A DNA stretch of 64,000 nucleotides from Labrys monachus. GTDB lineage: Bacteria > Pseudomonadota > Alphaproteobacteria > Rhizobiales > Labraceae. Position 1 is the stretch's first letter; every line of letters begins with the position of its first letter. The DNA lies in assembly GCF_030814655.1 (NCBI RefSeq), contig NZ_JAUSVK010000001.1, positions 689,043 to 753,042 of the forward strand, given 5' to 3'. The notes under the pieces were generated by a model, which was not told the origin of the DNA, did no database searches, and was given only the letters and a program-made list of their open reading frames with translations. Positions 23,592-63,846 of this stretch are shown here, one piece after another. The translations under genes and the position numbers were made by a program.

Positions 23592-24764
23592 TCACGTCCC
23601 CGGGCAGCTGTTCCGCTTGGCCTCGCGGCTGGCCCCGTTCAGGATGCTCGGGCCGGCCTTGGGATATTTGCGCGGCAATTCCAGCAGCGTGGCGCAGGCG
23701 GTGTCCTTCTCCCCGATCGCCGCCAGCGACATGCCGAGCTTCAGCATGCTCGAAGGGGCGCGGCGGGAATTGGCGTAGGTCTTCGTCACCTTGATGAACT
23801 GCTCGGCCGCATCGCTGTATTGCCGGCGCTGGTAGAGGCTCTCGCCGATCCAGTGGATCGCGTCGGGCACGCGCTTGTCCCGGGGATGGGCCTCGACGAA
23901 GCCGCGGAAGGCGCTCTCGGCCTGTTCGTATTTCTGCGCCGCGATCAGGCGGTAGTCGTTGTTGTATTCCTCCTCCGGCGTCGCCGCCGCGGTGGGCGGG
24001 ATGCCGGCGGCCGGCTCGTTGCTGGCGAGCGGCCGGCTGGTGTCGACGGCGACACCCGGAAGGCCGGGGGTGATGGTGGAGGAGTTCATCCGCTGGCGCG
24101 GCGGAGGCGGCGCCTGCAGGTCGTCGCCGCCCTGGTCGGCCGACATCTGGTCCTGGCCCGGATCCTGCCCGGCGGTGCCGGTCTGATCGCCGCCGGAGAG
24201 GGTGCCGAGCGTACGGGGCGGCGTGCCGAGCCCGTTCTGCTGGCGCGGCGGCGCGGCGTCGCTGCGCTGCTGCCGCGGCACCTGCGCGGGGGGAGCCTGC
24301 GGCGCCGGCCTCGGCGCCGGTGCAGCGCCGCCCTTGCCGCCTTCGAGGGCCTGCAGGCGATATTCGGTATCGTCCTGGGCGCGCTTCATGTCGTCCTGCA
24401 GCTTGCGGATCTGCGCCTGCAGATCGTCGACCATGCCGTTCAGGCGTCGATTGTCGCCCTCCAGGCGCTGCACCCGCACGAGGAGGTCGCCCACCTGGCT
24501 GTCGTTCTGCGCCACGACATAGTTGCTCCGCGCCGGTGAGACCTGATAAGTCGGCGGCTGAGCGGAGGGGGCCTGATCATATTGCGACTGGCCGTATTGC
24601 GGCTGGTCATACGCCTGGCCGCCCTTGTCCTGGCCGTACTGGTCCTGGTCGTTCTGGGCCGAGCCGACGGAACCCGGCGGCAGCAGGCCGTCGTCGGGTG
24701 AGGCGGCATGCGCCGCGCCCAGGGTCAAGGCCAGGAGAAGGGCGGCGGAGGCAGAGCGGAGCAT
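23592..24764 (-). CDS. cpoB: Tol-Pal cell division coordinator CpoB (YbgF)
   Basis: Periplasmic protein that links peptidoglycan synthesis with Tol-Pal constriction of the outer membrane. Of 390 residues, 1-20 are a signal peptide (LLLALTLGAAHAA), followed by a Gln/Tyr-rich stretch, a trimerising coiled coil (about 85-135; LVRVQRLEGDNRRLNGMVDD), a long Pro/Gln/Gly linker, and three TPR motifs from about residue 260 (YNNDYRLIAAQKYEQAESAF, RVPDAIHWIGESLYQRRQY). The ATG at 24764 gives a proper signal sequence; the frame continues upstream without it. It diverges from ybgC across a 93-base spacer. Confidence 0.9.
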   Translation of the reverse strand: MLRSASAALLLALTLGAAHAASPDDGLLPPGSVGSAQNDQDQYGQDKGGQAYDQPQYGQSQYDQAPSAQPPTYQVSPARSNYVVAQNDSQVGDLLVRVQRLEGDNRRLNGMVDDLQAQIRKLQDDMKRAQDDTEYRLQALEGGKGGAAPAPRPAPQAPPAQVPRQQRSDAAPPRQQNGLGTPPRTLGTLSGGDQTGTAGQDPGQDQMSADQGGDDLQAPPPPRQRMNSSTITPGLPGVAVDTSRPLASNEPAAGIPPTAAATPEEEYNNDYRLIAAQKYEQAESAFRGFVEAHPRDKRVPDAIHWIGESLYQRRQYSDAAEQFIKVTKTYANSRRAPSSMLKLGMSLAAIGEKDTACATLLELPRKYPKAGPSILNGASREAKRNSCPGT

Positions 24765-54706: not shown

Positions 54707-54783
54707 GGCGGGGTAGCTCAGCTGGTTAGAGCAGCGGAATCATAATCCGCGTGTCGGTGGTTCGAGTCCACTCCTCGCTACCA
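54707..54783 (+). tRNA. tRNA-Met (CAT), elongator type
   Basis: A complete cloverleaf with encoded CCA. The acceptor stem pairs GGCGGGG with CCTCGCT (two G-T pairs), the D-arm is AGCTCAGCTGGTTAGAGC, the anticodon arm GCGGA-ATCATAA-TCCGC has CAT, and the T-loop is GGTTCGAGTCC. The acceptor and body are unlike tRNA-Ile2 or initiator tRNA (no C1-A72 mismatch), so elongator Met. It marks the start of accessory DNA: an integrase remnant lies 163 bases downstream. Confidence 0.95.
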
Positions 54784-54975
54784 TTTCTTTGTTCGCCATG
54801 ATGCGCGAACGATCGGATTGTTTGAAAATCGATAGGTTAGGGTAGGAATTGTGCTCGGATAGGCGCACGCGAGTGCGTTTGAGTTCGGTTGAAGTCGCGT
54901 AGTTTGTTGGTGTTCGGCAATACCAACATGAGCTGATACCAACACATGGCACTGTCTGAGACTGCGATTCGCTTA

Positions 54976-56033
54976 GAGCGAAATTGTTCAGACTGTAGAA
55001 TATCCAGCATTAGAGAAGTAATTTCTGCATTCGGACGGGGAGAAGCGCGGGAGAGTTTTGGCGATTTCGTCCCAGAGATCGTGGATGGATCGGGTTGCAG
55101 CCGCGCGCAGGAGAGCTTTGAGCTTTGCGAAGAGGTTCTCGATCGGATTGAGATCGGGGGAGTAGGCGGGCAAGTAAAGCAGTTCCGCCCCTGCGGCCTC
55201 GATGGCTTGGCGCACACCCGGGACTTTGTGGCTGCTCAGATTGTCCATGATGACGATATCGCCGTAATTGAGGGTGGGAACGAGGATCTGCGCGACATAG
55301 GCCTTGAAGCAATCGCCGTTGACTGGGCCGTCGAGCACGCAGGGAGCTGTCAATCCCCCGCTGCGCAGAGCGCCAATGAAGGTCGTGGTTTTCCAATGGC
55401 CATGCGGCACGTAGTCGATCAGGCGCTGTCCGCGCTTGCACCTGCCGTAGTGGCGCGCCATCGCGGTCGAGGCCCAGGTCTCGTCAATGAAGACCAGACG
55501 CGAGGGCCTCAGCCAGATTTGGTTGCTGTGCCATTTGCGGCGAGCGGCCGCGACATCGGGGCGTTTTTGCTCGCTGGCGTGGATCGTCTTTTTTTATATG
55601 TCAGCCCAAGCCGCTTGAGCATATGCCACATCGGGGCATGGCTGATGCTGACCCCCAATTCTTCCTCCGCCCAGGCCCGCAGATCCGCGACACGCGCATC
55701 CGGATCAGCCGCGACCTTGGCCCGCAGAACCTCTTCATGCTTGGCAAGCTTGAGCGGAACATGATTGCGCTGGGGGCGGGCACTGACCTCCCCCGTCGCG
55801 CGCCGCCGCGCGGCCGCCTTGTAGATGTAGGACACACTCACCCTGAAGATTGGTGCGATTGTGCTCGCCGACATCCCGCTATCCAGCGCCCCAAGCACAC
55901 GATCTCGCAAATCCTGCGAATAGGCTTCACCACGCTTCGTCATGCTTCATCTCCGGAATAGCCCGGAAACCTATGAATCACACTAAGCCATCCAGTGGAA
56001 TCCCTTCCGATTCCACTCAGACAAATTCCGCTC
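54976..56033 (-). mobile_element. IS630-family insertion sequence, 1058 bp
   Basis: Bounded by a TA target duplication (54974-54975 and 56034-56035), as expected for IS630/Tc1-mariner elements. The terminal inverted repeats begin GAGCGAAATTGTTC on the left and GAGCGGAATTTGTC on the right (read inward), 11 of 14 identical. It carries one transposase spread over two frames. Excision in silico restores the integrase reading frame, which confirms the boundaries. Confidence 0.93.
54988..55943 (-). CDS. IS630-family transposase, two frames joined by frameshift
   Basis: The upstream frame (55943-55509) encodes the DNA-binding part with two helix-turn-helix units (YSQDLRDRVLGALDSGMSAS and SYIYKAAARRRATGE). 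The downstream frame, from about 55595 to 54988, encodes the DDE catalytic domain: FIDETW, IVIMDNLSSHK, YSPDLNPIENL. They meet at seven A residues on the minus strand (55595-55589). A -1 slip there gives one product of about 318 residues, the normal length. Programmed frameshifting is known in several IS630 elements; a sequencing error or mutation is the other explanation. Confidence 0.88.
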
Positions 56034-56229
56034 TAATCAAATCCAGCGCCAAGCTTCAGAAATTATCGGATGGCGGCGGCCTTCACCTCCTCGCAAGATC
56101 GTGTCCCAGGAAGTAGCGTAGCAGGACGGCATCGCCCGACGAATCACATGATCCACGCTAAATTTCTTCAGCGGATATTCAAGATAGGGCGCTACTCCGG
56201 TGCCTGTTTCCGCTCGGCCCGGGCCAGCC

Positions 56230-56811
56230 ATGTCTTTACAATATGAAGAGATCAAAGGACCACGTTTCCGAGCCGTGACCGTCGACGGTTACGACTAGAT
56301 CATAGTACCGCCTCAGCGCAACGCCTTCATCATGTTGTTCTTGCTGGTCTGGCTTTGTGGCTGGACACTTGGTGGTGTCATGGCGATGTACAATCTCTTG
56401 TCTCGTCCATTCCAACCTTTCCTGGCTATCTGGCTCTGCGCCTGGCTGGCTGGCGAAGGGTTTGCCCTCGCCAGCCTGGGCTGGATGTCAACAGGCGCGG
56501 AAATTCTACGCTTGGCCGGCTCCGATCTGGAGGTCAGCTACCGCATGCTAGGTTTCACCCGGAGCAAGCTCTATCGCGGCACGGCAATCAGCGACCTTTC
56601 GGCCGGTGTAGCACCAGTGTTCACCCGCAATGGCCGCTACGGCCAGATGTCGCTCCCCTTTTTCGGCGGCAACAAGACCGGCAGCGTCAAATTCATCTAT
56701 GGAGCGCAAACCATCTATTTGGCGGCAGGGTTGGATGAGGCCGAAGGGCAATTCATCGTCGAGCGCCTAAGCAAGAGGCTGCCCGTCACAGCAGGTGTTC
56801 GGAAAAGTTAG
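56230..56811 (+). pseudogene. Two-span membrane protein gene with an in-frame amber codon
   Basis: The frame reads MSLQYEEIKGPRFRAVTVDG, then YD, TAG at 56296-56298 (codon 23), then IIVPPQRNAFIMLFLLVWLC and on to 56811. It has two membrane spans (about residues 35-55 and 62-85) and a PH-like beta-rich C-terminal domain (ILRLAGSDLEVSYRMLGFTR, TIYLAAGLDEAEGQFIVERL). The codon is probably a changed tryptophan (TGG to TAG), since hydrophobic residues follow and the frame continues. A shorter product could start at the ATG at 56332. Family not named; unknown function. Confidence 0.72.
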
Positions 56812-57278
56812 CCGATTGCGGAGTGTGTATGTTCGATAACCTGATCAGAACGTCCAGACTGCTCGGCATCCTCCCACTATATCCGAATTTATTGTCGGTC
56901 TTTTGGCGAACCGGTGGGAATACCGTTTCGTCCTGAAAAATCGCGAGCAATGGGCGCAGGCGATCGACAAGCGGTGGAGCGCTATTGCAACAGCGTCTCC
57001 AGCGGCGCCGGCTTCGCAAGGCTGCCGGTCGCATCATTCAGAGGGGGAGGGGGGAAGGGGCGCCGGCTGACGACGGGGTTTGTGGTCGTCCGAGCGGTCT
57101 TGTCGATAGTTTAGCAATCACGAACGCCTCTCGTGATCGTTAATTGTCGTGGGCTCCAGTCAGTCTTACCATTTATAGTTGGTTGAGGCGCGAAGGGGGC
57201 GCACGTCGACTCGATCGGCATTTCTGTTTTGTTCGGAGGCTCGAATGCGATCGACGACAAAGGTTCGAGCATGGATCG
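56812..57278. other. Intergenic region before the MalT-like regulator
   Basis: About 470 bases without a supported gene. One plus-strand frame (about 56879-57065) encodes a moderately protein-like stretch (GLLANRWEYRFVLKNREQWA) that may be a gene remnant; I could not identify it. Confidence 0.35.
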
Positions 57279-59990
57279 ATGGAATACGCCAAACCCGAAT
57301 TGCTATCGTCCAAGATACTGCTCCCGACGCCGGCAGCATGGGAAATCAAGCGCCCCCGCCTGATGGAAAAGCTCCCCGTCGTGAGGCGCTCCCAGGTCAC
57401 GGTCCTCAAGGCGGGCGCTGGCTTCGGCAAGACTTCCCTGGCCAGCGCATGGGCGTCGCAATTGCGGCTGGACGGCAACGCCGTCGCTTGGATTTCCCTG
57501 GATCGAGAGGACGACGAGCCGACGGCGTTCTTTTTTTATCTGGCGCACGCCCTCAAGGAATGTGACAGCACGATCACCGCGGCATCAGTGAGCTTGTTTG
57601 ACCATAAGCCCCTCGTGGCGGTTACATCCGCTGTCTCGGCGCTGATCGACGACATAAGGGGATTCAGGAAAGAAATTTACGCGTTTATCGATGACTTCCA
57701 TTGTATTCTCGATGCGGAAATATTGGACGGTATCGACCTATTGTTGAAATACGCCCCGCGCAATTTTCATGTGATACTGACTACGCGGCTTGATCCCGGC
57801 CTTCCACTTGCGCGCCTTCGGTCACAGAATCGGCTGGTCGAGATCGATGCGTCGTCCCTTGCGTTCGATTTGAACGAGATCGGTGCCTTCCTGAAGCAGG
57901 AGCAGCTTGGCGATCTGAGTGTTTCGGCCCTCAGCCTCCTCCATCGCCGCACGGAAGGATGGCCGGCCCTTCTTCGGATCTTGTCTGTGACCTCGTCGCA
58001 GTCCGGCGAGACGTTCTCGAGCTACATTGAGCGGCTGACCGGGGACCTGAAGCCGGTAACCGAGTTCTTCGCGGATCTTCTCGACGGACTGGCGCCTGCG
58101 CTCCTCGAGTTCATGATGCGCATTTCGGTGCTTCGACGGTTCAGCGAAGCCCTCTGCGCGTCGGTCACGAACGATGTCGCCAGCATCCGGCATCTGGCCT
58201 CGCTGGCAACACGGCATGTCCTGCTGATACCCCTGGATCAGGAGGGGACGTGGTACAGATTCCATCCCCTGCTGGCGGAGCATCTCTCGCGGGAGTTGCA
58301 GGCCCGGAGCGCCGGTGCAATCCCGGAGCTGCATCGGCGTGCTGCGGACTGGCTCGCCAGGAACGAGCTTTGGACCGAGGCAATCCATCACGCGATTGCA
58401 GCCGGCGATATGAACCGGGCAGCCGAATGGATCGCCGGCTGCGTCATGTCGCTGATCAAATCGGGTGACCTGATCACACTTCTCAGTTGGCAGAGGCTCT
58501 TTCCCCGAGCCCTCATGCGGGCGCACACGCGTGCGAAGCTGTCGATCGCTTGGGGATTGGCGATTGCCATACGCTATGACGAGGCGCTCGATTTGGTCGA
58601 AGAAACCGAGCAGGAAATAAGACGCGACTGTGTTGATGGCGCCGAAGCGTTCTTGACGGAATGTGAGGCCATCCGGGCCGTGGTGCTCACATTCAGATTC
58701 GACATCGAAACGGCCAAGGTGACGGCCGAGCACACCGTATCCACGGCAACGGAGCCATGGACCTTCAACACAGCGTCAAACATGCTTCGGCTTTGCCATT
58801 GGAGAAACGGCGATCTTGCTGCCTTCTACGCGACTCCATGGATGCCTCTCTCGATCGAGGAGGAGCCGCGCTATATTTGGACGGCGGTGTTCAAACTCTG
58901 TCTTCAGGCCGGCGTCGAATTTGAACAGCTTCACGCCGGCCTCTCGAGGCGGTACAGCGAAGACGCGTATGCCAAGGCGAGAAAAAGTGCCGGAATCAAT
59001 TCGATGCCTGCCGCTCTGGCCGCGGCTCTGCTTGCTCGCATCCATTACGAACAAAGTCGCGTCGACGAGGCTGAGCAATTGCTGCTTCGCCATTTGACGC
59101 TGATAAATGCCACGGCCACCAGTGAGTACGCACTGAACGCCTATTTAACTCTGACAAGAATCTCCATTTTGCGCCAGGACTTCGCGAGTGCGCACCAATT
59201 TTTGGAATCCGCAGAGCACCTGGCGCACGGCCGGGAATGGCGGCGAATGATCGCGGCCGTTGTTTTGGAGCGATTACGCCTCTACTTGCTGGAGGGCCGC
59301 AAGCTCGAGGCGGATGCGACTCTCGTGCGCCTTGACCAAATGGCGGCTGCATTTTCCGCGGCGCCCCGCAAAGCCGATCTCCTGATACCTGTCTACGCCA
59401 AGGTGGCGCGGGCCTCGGTGGAACTCGGCGCCGGCCATTTTTTGCAGGCAGTCGATATTTTCGGCCGGGCCGCCGAGGATTTGGCAACTTATCATAATAA
59501 ATACTTGCGTATGTGGCTGGAGTTTCAGCTTTCGAGCGCGATGTATCTGGCCGGGAGAAGAGAGGAGGCGGAGCATGTTTTTAACGTCGCGCTCAGGAAG
59601 GCAGCCGGAGCGGGATTTACCCAGATTGTATTGGACCAAGGCCCCATAGGCGAAATATTGATACGAAGCATAAAGCTTGATCAGTCAAATATCGCCGCCG
59701 AAAACGAGCAGTTTATTCGTTTTTGCGAGAGGACGATCGATTTTGGGGAGCAGCTTCGACTGCGGAGCGGCGCCGCTATCACCGACGGTGTTCCGAACAT
59801 GCTCAGCCCGCGGGAGCATGGCATCCTGCAGCGCGTCAGTCACGGTCAATCCAACAAGGAAATTGCCAGAGAATTGGGAATTGCGGCCGAGACCGTTAAG
59901 TCGCATATCAAGAATATCTTTGTGAAGCTTGGTGTCGGCCGCCGCAATCACGCGGTCAGACGCGGCGTCGAGTTGGGGCTTTTGAAGTAA
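57279..59990 (+). CDS. MalT-like ATP-dependent LuxR-family regulator (LAL/STAND)
   Basis: A 903-residue regulator. The N terminus has a P-loop AGAGFGKTS (45-53) and a STAND-type NTPase domain (FIDDFHCILDAEILDGIDLL, FHVILTTRLDPGLPLARLR, TEGWPALLRIL). A middle of about 400 residues holds TPR-like helices. The C-terminal 65 residues are a LuxR helix-turn-helix (LSPREHGILQRVSHGQSNKE, ETVKSHIKNIFVKLGVGRR). Such proteins bind ATP and an inducer, oligomerise and activate nearby genes. I chose the ATG at 57279 for the MalT-like start; the frame is open 45 codons earlier. It lies upstream of poxB and cioAB on the same strand and is a likely activator of them. Confidence 0.88.
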   Translation: MEYAKPELLSSKILLPTPAAWEIKRPRLMEKLPVVRRSQVTVLKAGAGFGKTSLASAWASQLRLDGNAVAWISLDREDDEPTAFFFYLAHALKECDSTITAASVSLFDHKPLVAVTSAVSALIDDIRGFRKEIYAFIDDFHCILDAEILDGIDLLLKYAPRNFHVILTTRLDPGLPLARLRSQNRLVEIDASSLAFDLNEIGAFLKQEQLGDLSVSALSLLHRRTEGWPALLRILSVTSSQSGETFSSYIERLTGDLKPVTEFFADLLDGLAPALLEFMMRISVLRRFSEALCASVTNDVASIRHLASLATRHVLLIPLDQEGTWYRFHPLLAEHLSRELQARSAGAIPELHRRAADWLARNELWTEAIHHAIAAGDMNRAAEWIAGCVMSLIKSGDLITLLSWQRLFPRALMRAHTRAKLSIAWGLAIAIRYDEALDLVEETEQEIRRDCVDGAEAFLTECEAIRAVVLTFRFDIETAKVTAEHTVSTATEPWTFNTASNMLRLCHWRNGDLAAFYATPWMPLSIEEEPRYIWTAVFKLCLQAGVEFEQLHAGLSRRYSEDAYAKARKSAGINSMPAALAAALLARIHYEQSRVDEAEQLLLRHLTLINATATSEYALNAYLTLTRISILRQDFASAHQFLESAEHLAHGREWRRMIAAVVLERLRLYLLEGRKLEADATLVRLDQMAAAFSAAPRKADLLIPVYAKVARASVELGAGHFLQAVDIFGRAAEDLATYHNKYLRMWLEFQLSSAMYLAGRREEAEHVFNVALRKAAGAGFTQIVLDQGPIGEILIRSIKLDQSNIAAENEQFIRFCERTIDFGEQLRLRSGAAITDGVPNMLSPREHGILQRVSHGQSNKEIARELGIAAETVKSHIKNIFVKLGVGRRNHAVRRGVELGLLK

Positions 59991-60606: not shown

Positions 60607-62337
60607 GTGAGGAACTCAAAAGTTGCCGATCTTGTCACTGAAATTCTGTACTCGGTCGGCGTCCGCCGCATATACGGTATTGTCGGCGACAGCCTGAACG
60701 GGATTACCGACTCCCTTCGAAGGCGCGGCGACATCGACTGGATTCACACCCGTCATGAAGAGACGGCCGCCTTCGCCGCCGGGGCTGAAGCCCATTTGAC
60801 CGGCAATCTGGCCGTTTGTGCCGGCAGCTGCGGACCAGGAAACCTGCATCTCATAAATGGGCTCTTCGATGCGCATCGCTCGCGAGTGCCGGTCCTCGCG
60901 ATCGCCGCTCATATTCCCAGTGCCGAGATCGGGCGCGGTTTTTTTCAGGAAACCCACCCGGAGACGTTGTTTCGCGAGTGCAGCCATTATTGCGAGCTTG
61001 TCTCAAACCCGGCGCAGCTTCCCGGCGTCCTGGAGAGCGCCATCCGCGCAGCTCTCGGACAGCGCGGTGTTGCCGTCGTGGTCATCCCCGGGGACATCGC
61101 CCTGAAGGAGGTTTCGGCGCCGATCTCGTCGGCGGCGGCAATTGCACTCTCCCAGCCCGTCGTGACACCCGACGACACCGATCTCGAAGATCTGGCGGTG
61201 CGCTTGAACCGCAGCAAACGGACGACGCTTCTGTGCGGGCGCGGCTGTGCCGGGGCCCATGATGCGTTGCTGGCGCTGGCGGACAGGCTCAAATCTCCCA
61301 TCGTCCACGCATTCGGTGGCAAGGAGCATGTCGAATATGACAATCCCTTCGATGTGGGCATGACCGGGTTGATCGGGTTCAGTTCCGGCTATCACGCCAT
61401 GCTGGATTGTGACCTTCTCCTGATGCTCGGGACGGATTTTCCGTATCGGCAATTCTATCCAACCGACGCCAAGATCGTGCAGATCGACCTGCGCCCTGAA
61501 AACCTTGGCCGACGGACACATCTTGATCTTGGGCTGGTCGGCGATGTCGGCGCCACCATCTCCGCCCTGCTGCCGAAGTTGGAAGTCAAGCAGGATCGAT
61601 CCCATCTGGATGATAGCCTTGCCAATTATCGCAAGGCGCGTGCCGGATTGGACGAACTCGCGACGGGAAAGCCGGGACGAAAGCCCATTCATCCGCAATA
61701 TCTGGCCAGATTGCTCAGTGAACAGGCCAGTGACGACGCCGTGTTCACGTTCGATGTCGGCACGCCCTCGATCTGGGCGGCGCGCTATCTGAAGATGAAT
61801 GGTCGCCGCCGGCTCATCGGGTCGTTGACACACGGCTCGATGGCCAATGCCATGCCGCAGGCCATTGGCGCCCAAGCCGCCTATCCGGGCCGCCAGGTCG
61901 TCAGCCTGTCGGGCGACGGCGGCTTCGCGATGTTAATGGGGGATTTCTTGACGCTCGTGCAGCAGAAGCTGCCGATCAAGGTCGTGGTCTTCAACAATTC
62001 CACGCTCGGGTTCGTGGCATTGGAAATGAAGGCCACCGGCTTCCTCGAGACCGGAACCTCGCTGACCAATCCGGATTTTGCCGCAATGGCGCGGGCTGTC
62101 GGCATTCACGCCATTCGGGTCGAGGATCCTGCGGAGTTGGACGCTGCCATTCGAGACGTGCTGGCGCATGACGGGCCGGCTCTCCTCGATGTCGTCACCA
62201 ATGCGCAAGAGCTTGCCATGCCTCCGAGCATCGACCTGGAGCAGGTGAAAGGCTTCGGCCTATGGGCGCTCAGGGCCGTTATCAACGGGCGGGGCGACGA
62301 GTTGCTCGATCTCGCGCGGACCAATCTTCTGCGCTGA
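60607..62337 (+). CDS. poxB: Pyruvate:quinone oxidoreductase (pyruvate oxidase PoxB-like)
   Basis: ThDP- and FAD-dependent peripheral membrane enzyme, 576 residues, converting pyruvate to acetate and CO2 and passing electrons to ubiquinone. The N-terminal domain carries [18 protein letters not shown] (conserved Glu) and [20 protein letters not shown]. The ThDP site is [16 protein letters not shown] followed by [10 protein letters not shown]. It ends at DLARTNLLR, near where the E. coli lipid-binding tail begins. Start GTG, with AGGAG about 10 bases upstream. It precedes cioAB by 87 bases. Other members of the fold (acetolactate synthase) are less like it. Confidence 0.86.
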
Positions 62338-62424
62338 GCCGCCGGGCGGATTTGAGCGGGCGCCGAAGTCAGCGCCACTCGTCCATCATTCCGAATTTTG
62401 GCGTCATCTGCTCGGAGCCAGGTC

Positions 62425-63846
62425 ATGGACATGCCCGCGCTGTTGCTCTCGCGTATCCAGTTTGCATTTACCGTCTCATTCCACATTATTTTCCCGGCCT
62501 TCACTGTCGGTCTGGCCGCATGGCTTGCGTTCCTGGAGGCTCTATCCCTTGCGACCGGCCGGCCGGTGTATCGGCGGCTTTTCGATTTCTGGCTCGGCAT
62601 CTTCGGCGTCGCCTTTGGCCTGGGTGTCGTCTCGGGCATTGTCATGAGCTTCGAGTTCGGTACGAACTGGAGCGAACTGGCGCGTCGCACCGGTCCGATC
62701 CAGGGGCCCTTGCTCGGCTATGAAACCTTCACGGCGTTCGCCTTGGAGGCAGCCTTCTTCGGCGTCCTGATCTTCGGCCGAAAGCGGGTGCCCCGATGGT
62801 TCTATCTGGTGGCCTGCATCCTGGTCGCCGCCGGGACGAGCCTGTCGGCCTTCTGGATCATGGTCAACAACAGCTGGATGCAGTGGCCCGTCGGCTTCAC
62901 GCTAAGGCAGGACGGCGTTTTCGTACCGACGGATTGGTTCGCCATCATCTTCGATCCGGTCGTCTGGGTGCGCTTCCCGCATATGTTCCTGGCGGCCTAT
63001 GTCACCACGGCCTTCTGCGTGGCGGCGACAGGGGCATGGCATCTGTTGCGTGACAGCTTCAAGTCTGATGCTCGAACGATGCTCCATATGGGCCTGGGAC
63101 TTGCCGCTGTGCTGATTCCGCTTCAGCTGCTCTTTGGGCATCTGGTCGGCGATTACACCCACGACAAGCAGCCGGCAAAGTTTGCCGCCATCGAGGCCCG
63201 TTGGCATGACGAGCAGCCGGCGTCCGAAGTGCTGATGGCCTGGCCCGATCCGGGGCATGAACGCAATCTCTATGAGATCAGCATTCCCTATCTGGGCAGC
63301 CTCATCGCTTCCATGCGCTTCGATAGCAAGGAGGTGGGACTGGCGACCTTTCCTCCTTCCGACCGGCCACCGGTGCTGATCCCGTTCTTTGCCTTTCGCA
63401 TCATGGTCGGCTGCGGCCTCCTCATGCTCGCTTTGGCATGGTTCGGCACCTATCTTGTCGTGACCGGCCGCCTCGAGCGCATGCGCTGGTTCCTGTGGGC
63501 GACCTTCTGCTCGTTCCCTCTGGGCTTCATCGCCACCTTGACCGGTTGGTTTACGGCGGAGGTCGGGCGCCAGCCCTGGACCGTCTATGGGCAGCTTCGC
63601 ACAGCCGATGCGGCAACGCCGTTCCTGACCTCGCCGCAAGTGGCGACAAGCCTTGTGATTTTCGCCGCTGTCTACGCGCTGATTTTTCTGTTTGGCGCGA
63701 TCTACATCTATCAGCTGCTGCGGCGCGGGCCGGTCGTTCTGCCGGCCTTCGAAAGCGCGGCGACCAATCCCAAACGACCGCTTTCAATGTCGGGCGGCAG
63801 CCCCGGTGTGCCCGCACCGACTCCGGCTTCGGAGATCAGCGAATGA
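62425..63846 (+). CDS. cioA: Cytochrome bd-type (cyanide-insensitive) ubiquinol oxidase subunit I
   Basis: A 473-residue membrane protein with about nine spans that oxidises ubiquinol and holds haems b558, b595 and d. The haem-ligand histidine is at residue 20 (FTVSFHIIFPAF). QPAKFAAIEARWHDEQPASE is the quinol-binding loop start, and GWFTAEVGRQPWTVYGQLRT is the GRQPW block. The periplasmic Q-loop is short, which marks the CIO branch. The ATG at 62425 is preferred; another at 62431. Its stop overlaps the cioB start (ATGA). Confidence 0.93.
   Translation: MDMPALLLSRIQFAFTVSFHIIFPAFTVGLAAWLAFLEALSLATGRPVYRRLFDFWLGIFGVAFGLGVVSGIVMSFEFGTNWSELARRTGPIQGPLLGYETFTAFALEAAFFGVLIFGRKRVPRWFYLVACILVAAGTSLSAFWIMVNNSWMQWPVGFTLRQDGVFVPTDWFAIIFDPVVWVRFPHMFLAAYVTTAFCVAATGAWHLLRDSFKSDARTMLHMGLGLAAVLIPLQLLFGHLVGDYTHDKQPAKFAAIEARWHDEQPASEVLMAWPDPGHERNLYEISIPYLGSLIASMRFDSKEVGLATFPPSDRPPVLIPFFAFRIMVGCGLLMLALAWFGTYLVVTGRLERMRWFLWATFCSFPLGFIATLTGWFTAEVGRQPWTVYGQLRTADAATPFLTSPQVATSLVIFAAVYALIFLFGAIYIYQLLRRGPVVLPAFESAATNPKRPLSMSGGSPGVPAPTPASEISE

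What the first reader, a model, noticed from the sequence alone, without database searches (positions are those of the whole stretch)
54707..56116. IS630 insertion inside a P4-type integrase remnant next to tRNA-Met
The sequence 54946-54975 joined to 56036 onward, with the IS and one TA copy removed, restores an in-frame integrase start (MALSETAIRLIKSSAKLQ... SDGGGLHLL). This gives an exact excision test of the IS boundaries and shows a tRNA-proximal island border in which the integrase was first disrupted or truncated and then lost. The island content downstream (regulator, poxB, cioAB) may have arrived with it.
Basis: partly seen in the sequence, partly recalled or inferred. Interest (0 to 1): 0.75.

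Follow-up and report, generated by a model that had tools for sequence, protein, structure and literature searches.

The report
IS-split integrase relic beside tRNA-Met
A jumping gene has landed in the leftover first 29 codons of a dead island-integrase gene next to a methionine tRNA, which is ordinary, but comparing its leftover control region with living relatives suggests that three amino acids in this enzyme family track the short DNA word repeated beside the gene.

Summary
An IS630 element (54976-56033, 1058 bp, TA on both sides; 17 full copies found in this Labrys chromosome, all TA-flanked) sits between codons 10 and 11 of an integrase start. Without the IS and one TA the flanks read MALSETAIRL|IKSSAKLQKLSDGGGLHLL, which aligns ungapped with 29 of 29 fetched relatives; 27 of these have a tRNA 151-204 bp upstream on the same strand (window: 162). 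Only 29 codons survive; no catalytic part and no attR were found. Whether the cargo came with it is undecidable. By itself this is ordinary.

The relic keeps repeats (TTGTTGGTG, two ATACCAACA) before the ATG. In relatives such repeats often read xyGGz, and x, y, z track arm-domain columns 41, 49 and 51: 58 of 61 called integrases match x and y (re-paired maximum 32; partly in-sample), with recurrent co-changes on a tree. Seven out-of-sample calls agreed (two near-copies), as does one of this genome's two intact PF13356-type integrases; several distant ones use other words. This looks like a recognition code, inferred from covariation only. A solved arm-domain entry (3rmp, titled on attP recognition) may already show part of it; its paper was not seen.

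The parts
54707..54783 (+). tRNA-Met (CAT); its 3' end is the presumed attachment site
   Evidence: ARAGORN; orthologous tRNA after suhB in 4 of 4 same-genus genomes
54784..54945 (+). 162-bp relic of attL / integrase promoter region
   Evidence: position and length match 27 tRNA-linked relatives, 151-204 bp
54904..54912 (+). arm-site-like copy TTGTTGGTG
   Evidence: word TGTTGG on both strands in the last 95 nt, shuffle p 0.028, not corrected for the 28 gaps tested
54920..54928 (-). arm-site-like inverted copy ATACCAACA
54936..54944 (-). second inverted copy ATACCAACA, 16 bp from the first, one base before the ATG
54946..54975 (+). codons 1-10 of the integrase relic (MALSETAIRL), ending in the target TA
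54974..54975 (.). TA target copy, left
54976..56033 (-). IS630-family insertion sequence, 1058 bp; ends GAGCGAAATT / GAGCGGAATT (inverted)
   Evidence: 17 full copies found in the genome, 13 identical including this one, 4 sharing the same 4 substitutions
55509..55943 (-). IS630 orfA (helix-turn-helix part)
   Evidence: HTH_33, HTH_Tnp_IS630; transpos_IS630 profile positions 3-123
55589..55595 (-). A7 run (T7 on the + strand) where orfA would pass to orfB by a -1 shift
   Evidence: shift inferred
54988..55461 (-). IS630 orfB as listed (DDE part); its frame continues upstream to the A7 run
   Evidence: DDE_3; NF033545 above cut-off; frame
56034..56035 (.). TA target copy, right
56036..56092 (+). 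codons 11-29 of the integrase relic (IKSSAKLQKLSDGGGLHLL); similarity to integrases ends here
57144..59990 (+). MalT-like LuxR regulator (downstream cargo, link to the integrase unproven)
   Evidence: best match in the same genus 29%, in G004
60607..62337 (+). poxB-like ubiquinone-dependent pyruvate dehydrogenase (cargo, link unproven)
   Evidence: NF006591 above cut-off
62398..63846 (+). cytochrome bd-type oxidase subunit I (cargo, link unproven)
   Evidence: PF01654

Best explanation
This is the dead left edge (attL side) of an old genomic island that entered at the 3' end of tRNA-Met through a P4-type tyrosine integrase (PF13356 arm domain). Shown: the tRNA, a 162-bp gap with arm-site-like repeats, 29 codons of the integrase, and a clean IS630 insertion at a TTAA target between codons 10 and 11. 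Shown: no rest of the integrase and no right-hand repeat found in the next 176 kb, so the relic cannot catalyse movement. Inferred: the integrase in life bound the repeats just before its own ATG with its arm domain and, as shown elsewhere for tRNA-linked integrases with this layout (PMC2951348), would have repressed its own promoter there. Inferred from covariation in relatives: three residues on one beta-hairpin of the arm domain (columns 41, 49, 51) choose the letters x, y, z of the repeat word xyGGz. The window's repeats read TTGGT, so the lost enzyme should have belonged to the class with a small or Gln residue at 41, Gln at 49 and a residue other than Arg/Lys/Gln at 51.
For: IS boundaries and TA duplication in 17 of 17 copies; joined frame against HMM and shuffles; 27 of 29 relatives tRNA-linked on the same strand at 151-204 bp; alignment ends at the tRNA in 4 of 4 same-genus genomes and GC drops; two relatives with other islands and a tRNA repeat at this tRNA. 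Repeat arrays: 22 of 27 relatives at uncorrected p <= 0.05 in the both-strand word test; 22 of 27 with direct copies 12 bp apart against at most 7 in 200 shuffles. Code: in 65 called words of 95 non-redundant integrases, columns 41, 49 and 51 are the top columns for x, y and z; 58 of 61 match both x and y, re-paired mean 21.6 and maximum 32. On a tree built without the arm domain no independent pair goes the other way in six of the seven x and y rules tested, and z has 8 pairs with p 0.008. Out-of-sample x 7/7, y 5/5, z 7/7. Own intact integrase with D, R, T has ACGGTA, both strands counted, five times in 230 bp upstream. Residues 41, 48 and 50 lie on strands 36-44 and 47-56 of a model of mean pLDDT 87 that matches the solved arm domains 3ju0, 3jtz and 3rmp.
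Against: Relic: the remnant alone is below Pfam's cut-off; no relative at tRNA-Met was found; none of the four same-genus genomes has a match; no attR; the window lacks the 12-bp direct pair seen in most relatives. Code: the extractor fixes GG and allows only T or C after it, a choice made after seeing the first words; 30 of 95 integrases gave no unambiguous word, and in 27 of these with assignable residues the predicted word was top or tied in 15, alone at the top in 9. Misfits L272, L361, L401, L405, L480. R at column 41 is the weakest rule (C in 5 of 7; pairs 2 for, 0.2 against, of 4). All but one of the x and y pair tests stay above p 0.05, having under 6 pairs. Of the 11 out-of-sample loci without a call, by eye L654, L662, L663 and L665 do not show the predicted word as a repeat, L666 fails at z and L652 has GGGGGAAC; L658, L663, L664 and L665 have 12-bp pairs of other words without GG. 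The second intact PF13356 integrase of this genome (residues R and P by eye) has GGGTAA copies, which the P-to-A observation does not predict. No binding was measured.
Confidence: 0.88

Rival explanations
1. The joined reading frame is a coincidence and no integrase was ever here.
For: The fragment is short and scores only 13.0 bits against PF13356, no more than an unrelated model.
Against: 34.0 bits against the family HMM with at most 8.7 in shuffles; tRNA distance, orientation and arm-like repeats all fit.
Confidence: 0.02
2. The IS itself removed the integrase body by an adjacent deletion, so that truncation is a consequence of the IS.
For: IS elements can cause adjacent deletions (general knowledge, recalled); the IS family is recent here, 13 identical copies.
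Against: Both TA copies and 57 nt of in-frame integrase lie beyond the right IS end, so no deletion starts at that end.
Confidence: 0.1
3. Regulator, poxB, cioAB and the following low-GC genes arrived together with this integrase as one island.
For: They start right after the relic, GC is 0.58-0.64 for about 40 kb, and close orthologues are absent from three of four Labrys relatives.
Against: No attR, no mobility gene among the 8 downstream proteins scanned, and the sister genomes show that this tRNA takes up different islands, so layered gains are as likely.
Confidence: 0.4
4. The residue-to-repeat correspondence is shared ancestry, not direct DNA reading.
For: Related integrases share both residues and repeats; starred independent pairs number only 4 to 8 per rule.
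Against: At least 13 changes of y and 14 of column 49 on a tree from the rest of the protein; the best columns of about 100 for x, y and z lie on one hairpin; within one column-49 class column 41 still tracks x, 59 against at most 53 in shuffles.
Confidence: 0.12

Closest known systems
IS630 family (Tc1/mariner superfamily) insertion sequences
   Same: DDE transposase, HTH part, TA duplication, YTAR targets, inverted ends; TA duplication and mechanism of the family in PMC2170065 (passages read, where a cited title names preference for CTAG); frameshifting known in the family (PMC5009743, passages read)
   Different: Of 486 plasmid records with a match none covers 80% of the IS; the listed ones cover at most 55%. 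ISfinder was not available, so its element name is unknown
P4-type / IntSXT-type tRNA-linked integrases (PF13356, PF22022, PF00589)
   Same: First 29 residues, tRNA-integrase orientation and gap, repeats before the ATG; tRNA-linked integrases whose promoter overlaps attL are described in PMC2951348 (passages); the DUF4102 arm domain of the IntSXT subgroup in PMC8138268 (passages)
   Different: Central and catalytic domains are gone; no relative at tRNA-Met among those fetched
GI-pheV islands of E. coli
   Same: P4 integrase next to a tRNA; 27 of 41 islands had flanking direct repeats, so many lack a recognisable attR; some lack a full integrase, presumably through IS (PMC11537424, passages read)
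   Different: There intP4 is the one conserved gene; here it is reduced to 29 codons
Solved arm domains 3ju0, 3jtz and 3rmp
   Same: Same domain by sequence, E 1.1e-40 and 5.1e-30, and by fold, E 1e-8 to 1e-6. 3rmp is titled 'Structural basis for the recognition of attP substrates by P4-like integrases'
   Different: Only entry titles were seen. The 2009 paper (PMC2797237) is not held and the work behind 3rmp was not searched for, so single contacts may be known; whether a family-wide code has been stated is open

Membership tests
IS630 family | Transposase of the family | tested here: met
   orfB 125.8 bits over the NF033545 cut-off of 100; orfA 57 bits to the same model
IS630 family | TA target duplication | tested here: met
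   17 of 17 copies
IS630 family | Terminal inverted repeats | tested here: met
   GAGCG[A/G]AATT at both ends, imperfect beyond
IS630 family | Fusion of orfA and orfB by frameshift at A7 | not testable with these tools
   Frames and A7 run fit a -1 shift; expression not measured
P4-type tyrosine integrase | N-terminal arm domain (PF13356) | tested here: inconclusive
   Only 29 residues left: 13.0 bits, cut-off 27; 34.0 bits against own HMM of relatives
P4-type tyrosine integrase | Central and catalytic domains | tested here: not met
   Not found in the following 176 kb; this is a relic, not a working member
P4-type tyrosine integrase | tRNA 3' end upstream, same strand, attL in between | tested here: met
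   162 bp; relatives 151-204 bp
tRNA-borne genomic island | Synteny break at the tRNA | tested here: met
   4 of 4 same-genus genomes
tRNA-borne genomic island | Direct repeat of the tRNA 3' end at the far side | tested here: not met
   None found
tRNA-borne genomic island | Different composition | tested here: met
   GC 0.688 to 0.584 across the tRNA

The most novel reading that the evidence does not exclude
The arm domains of P4-type (PF13356) integrases read their arm sites by a simple three-residue, three-letter code on one beta-hairpin: column 41 sets x (K to G; A/S/Q to T; D/N to A; R mostly to C), column 49 sets y (Q to T; E to G; R to C), column 51 sets z (R/K/Q to C; L/T and other small or hydrophobic residues to T) in the word xyGGz, with further word classes without GG in more distant members. 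The attL arrays of islands, including dead ones like this, could then be matched to integrases from sequence alone.
Probability: 0.7. Interest if true: 0.7.

Novelty: new member of a known kind. Interest (0 to 1): 0.45.

Why it matters
The IS-in-integrase relic by itself is a familiar case of island decay. It led to something more useful: in a common family of island and phage integrases the DNA word beside the gene appears predictable from three residues. If true, attachment-site arrays can be located and paired with their integrase without experiments, orphaned attL scars can be assigned to an integrase class, and arm-site specificity becomes a directly testable protein-DNA recognition problem. 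The residue-base pairs for column 49 (Gln with A, Glu with C, Arg with G on the partner strand) are those expected from general knowledge of side-chain contacts (recalled).

Tried and rejected
Chance reading frame: rejected. attR: searched genome-wide and in the 176 kb downstream, none. Downstream core by DNA of a relative: only scattered repeats of up to 183 bp found, so the island's right end stays undefined. Translocated integrase body: none in the 180-kb stretch; the genome's 12 PF00589 and 2 PF13356 matches lie elsewhere. Plasmid records for the tRNA-to-integrase DNA: matches cover at most 32% of the query in the listed rows, the tRNA part. The Foldseek search finished late and brought the title of 3rmp, after which no paper search was left. 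Two late scans gave 5 loci, of which 2 were used.

Full report
WHAT IS THERE. The window lies at 689043-753042 of a 6.92-Mb single-contig chromosome. After a suhB-like gene (inositol monophosphatase family) comes tRNA-Met at 54707-54783, a 162-bp gap, and an ATG at 54946. Ten codons later the frame is cut by a 1058-bp insertion sequence, 54976-56033, flanked by TA on both sides. Beyond the second TA, 19 further codons in frame follow (56036-56092), and then similarity to integrases ends.

THE INSERTION SEQUENCE. Seventeen full-length copies were found in the chromosome (which scored 40 of 79 candidates). All 17 are 1058 bp, all are flanked by TA, and all targets read Y-TA-R; 13 including this one are identical and 4 share the same 4 substitutions. 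The transposase is split into orfA (HTH) and orfB (DDE_3; IS630 family above NCBI's cut-off) with an A7 run where a -1 shift would fuse them. Frameshifting is known in the IS630 family (PMC5009743, passages) and so are TA duplications (PMC2170065, passages). The boundaries were also tested away from the finding: the joined flank of copy L129 equals over 24 nt two uninterrupted copies of a dispersed repeat.

THE INTEGRASE RELIC. The reading restored by leaving out the IS and one TA scores 34.0 bits against an HMM from 22 intact relatives; the right ORF alone gives 17.3, the left alone -0.6, shuffles at most 8.7 (864 of 1000 reported). A search of 397 genomes of the order gave matches at E <= 0.1 in 63, own genome included; G001 to G004, the same-genus genomes, had none. 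Thirty loci were returned, one of them the own locus; in all 29 others the alignment crosses the junction without a gap, 22 of the 29 have at least 350 codons open, and 27 have a tRNA (13 Leu, 7 Thr, 5 Phe, 2 Ser, none Met) on the same strand with the integrase start 151-204 bp after its 3' end. The intact relative L086 has the three domains PF13356, PF22022 and PF00589. So the two halves do belong together. Against Pfam alone the remnant stays below the cut-off (13.0 against 27 bits).

THE ISLAND QUESTION. In the four same-genus genomes the DNA aligns with this genome up to 3-7 bp after the tRNA; in the stretches fetched only patches of 46-860 bp align further on. G001 and G002 carry, at the same tRNA, an integrase-like frame pointing towards the tRNA (25% identity to one of this genome's integrases, E 7e-4 and 2e-4) and a repeat of the tRNA's 3' half 18.8 and 59.0 kb away, so this tRNA is a recurrent entry site. 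In the window's genome no such repeat was found, no further integrase in the following 176 kb, and GC falls from 0.69 to 0.58, stays at 0.58-0.64 for about 40 kb and then varies between 0.61 and 0.71. In G001 to G003 the regulator matches only around its LuxR domain, poxB at best at 29-36% and cioA at 37-38%, with a further piece of 150 residues at 42% in G002; G004 has a 29% regulator, a 68% poxB and a 46% cioA on contigs other than the tRNA contig. Eight larger downstream proteins scanned are transport or metabolic. Gain by transfer is likely; gain with this integrase is not shown.

WHAT THE GAP STILL HOLDS. The 162-bp gap keeps TTGTTGGTG at 54904 and two inverted ATACCAACA copies at 54920 and 54936, the last ending one base before the ATG. 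In the relatives the same place carries short repeats: 22 of 27 reach uncorrected p <= 0.05 in a both-strand word test with 500 shuffles each, and 22 of 27 have direct copies 12 bp apart against at most 7 in 200 shuffles. The window lacks that 12-bp pair. The layout fits integrases whose promoter overlaps attL and which repress themselves (PMC2951348, passages).

A RECOGNITION CODE. The repeat words differ between relatives, and in the first 22 intact integrases two arm-domain columns split the two word classes without exception: column 49 Q in 12 of 12 and E in 10 of 10, column 41 A/S in 12 of 12 and K/R in 10 of 10 (the classes were assigned by me by eye). I wrote down a test and fetched viral-contig integrases. 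By the word counts set there (over 110 instead of 130 bp), 4 of 4 class A had Q and 25 of 26 class B had E; 30 of the 60 non-redundant ones fell in neither class. With four more scans, 433 loci, the 29 first ones included, gave 277 usable and 95 non-redundant integrases (below 80% identity over 100 residues). An extractor that does not look at the protein, but whose form (GG followed by T or C) I chose after seeing the first words, called a repeated word in 65 of 95, against a mean of 6.15 and a maximum of 12 in 20 rounds of shuffled DNA. Of about 100 columns, 41 had the highest mutual information with x (1.465 bits; 300 shuffles at most 0.786) and 49 with y (1.316; at most 0.677); each is also second best for the other letter. 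Column 49: Q to T 17/17, E to G 37/38, R to C 6/6, A to A 1/1, P to A or G one each, H to G 1. Column 41: K to G 32/32, A/S/Q to T 16/16, D to A 5/6, N to A 3/4, R to C 5/7. Column 51 tracked z: R/K/Q with C 17/17, others with T 47/48; 0.764 bits against at most 0.447 in 500 shuffles. Thinned to 60% identity (43 left): Q to T 12/12, E to G 21/22, R to C 6/6, K to G 18/18, A/S/Q to T 10/10, D to A 5/6, N to A 3/4, R41 to C 3/5.

CONTROLS AND LIMITS OF THE CODE. On a tree from residues after 100, y changes at least 13 times and column 49 at least 14 times. Seven x and y rules were tested by independent pairs on starred branches, 4 to 6 pairs each: in six no pair goes the other way, R41 to C is weak (2 with, 0.2 against, of 4), and only K41 to G reaches p 0.03, the others having too few pairs; z reaches p 0.008 with 8 pairs. 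Of 61 called integrases with assignable residues 58 match x and y, against a mean of 21.6 and a maximum of 32 under re-pairing; within a column-49 class x still matches in 59 against at most 53. These 61 helped to make the rules. Out of sample, 22 loci were fetched (L646-L667) and 19 given to the test; two of the others were the query loci themselves and one had almost no upstream DNA. Eight gave a called word; L656 was excluded as redundant; the other 7 agreed at x 7/7, y 5/5 and z 7/7, but L648 and L650 look like near copies of each other, have an extra residue in the hairpin and no y prediction. Of the 11 without a call, L660 shows its predicted ACGGT by eye, L652 has GGGGGAAC, L654, L662, L663 and L665 do not show the predicted word as a repeat, and L666 fails at z; L658, L663, L664 and L665 have 12-bp pairs of other words. 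Of the 30 uncalled, 27 had assignable residues and the predicted word was top or tied in 15, alone at the top in 9. This genome has two intact PF13356 integrases. One, at 3899358-3900485 (D, R, T read by eye from its sequence), has ACGGTA four times and its complement once in the 230 bp upstream, two of them 12 bp apart; only one lies in the 115 bp that the extractor uses. The other (R and P by eye) has GGGTAA three times, both strands counted, which the rules do not predict. An AlphaFold model of L257's arm domain (mean pLDDT 87) puts residues 41, 48 and 50 on the two strands 36-44 and 47-56 of a hairpin; that they share one face is my inference from strand alternation.

WHAT IS KNOWN. Arm domains of this family have been solved: 3ju0 and 3jtz, and 3rmp with the title 'Structural basis for the recognition of attP substrates by P4-like integrases'. 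The domain is described as the DUF4102 arm domain of the IntSXT subgroup (PMC8138268, passages). Part of the contacts may well be published; a family-wide code I have neither found nor excluded.

VERDICT. The finding is correct and ordinary as an anatomy: IS630 in the start of a decayed tRNA-linked integrase. The comparison it led to is the interesting part and remains a covariation result, limited to words with GG, until binding is measured.

Noticed in passing
window 56230-56811: Gene-like frame with one in-frame TAG after 22 codons (MSLQYEEIKGPRFRAVTVDGYD*...); the rest has a 46% homologue on a Novosphingobium plasmid. Probably a decayed gene.
   Followed up: partly
L118, L119, L129, L130 and L219-L229: A dispersed repeat of roughly 100 bp with palindromic parts hosts, judged by eye from the flanks, four of the 17 IS630 copies at its TA sites.
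   Followed up: partly
G001 contig 1 near 1375149-1356329; G002 contig 29 near 173166-232156: Two sister Labrys genomes carry islands of 18.8 and 59.0 kb at the same tRNA-Met with a repeat of the tRNA 3' half; the first 1276 bp after the tRNA are 91% identical between them.
   Followed up: partly
G000 contig 1 392960-392987: A solitary 28-bp right end of the IS630 element, followed by TAG like many of the full copies.
   Followed up: no
L648, L650: Integrases with GTGGTA repeats and an extra residue in the hairpin (KKQPK); a possible further word class.
   Followed up: no
L658, L663, L664, L665: More distant arm-domain integrases with 12-bp direct pairs of words without GG, such as GAGTA or TAGTACA.
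   Followed up: no
L286, L290, L291, L292, L652: Integrases with K, E, R residues and a GGGGGAAC-like word, not covered by the T/C rule for z.
   Followed up: no
window 24233-24329: A second tRNA gene, tRNA-Ser (gct), 97 nt.
   Followed up: no
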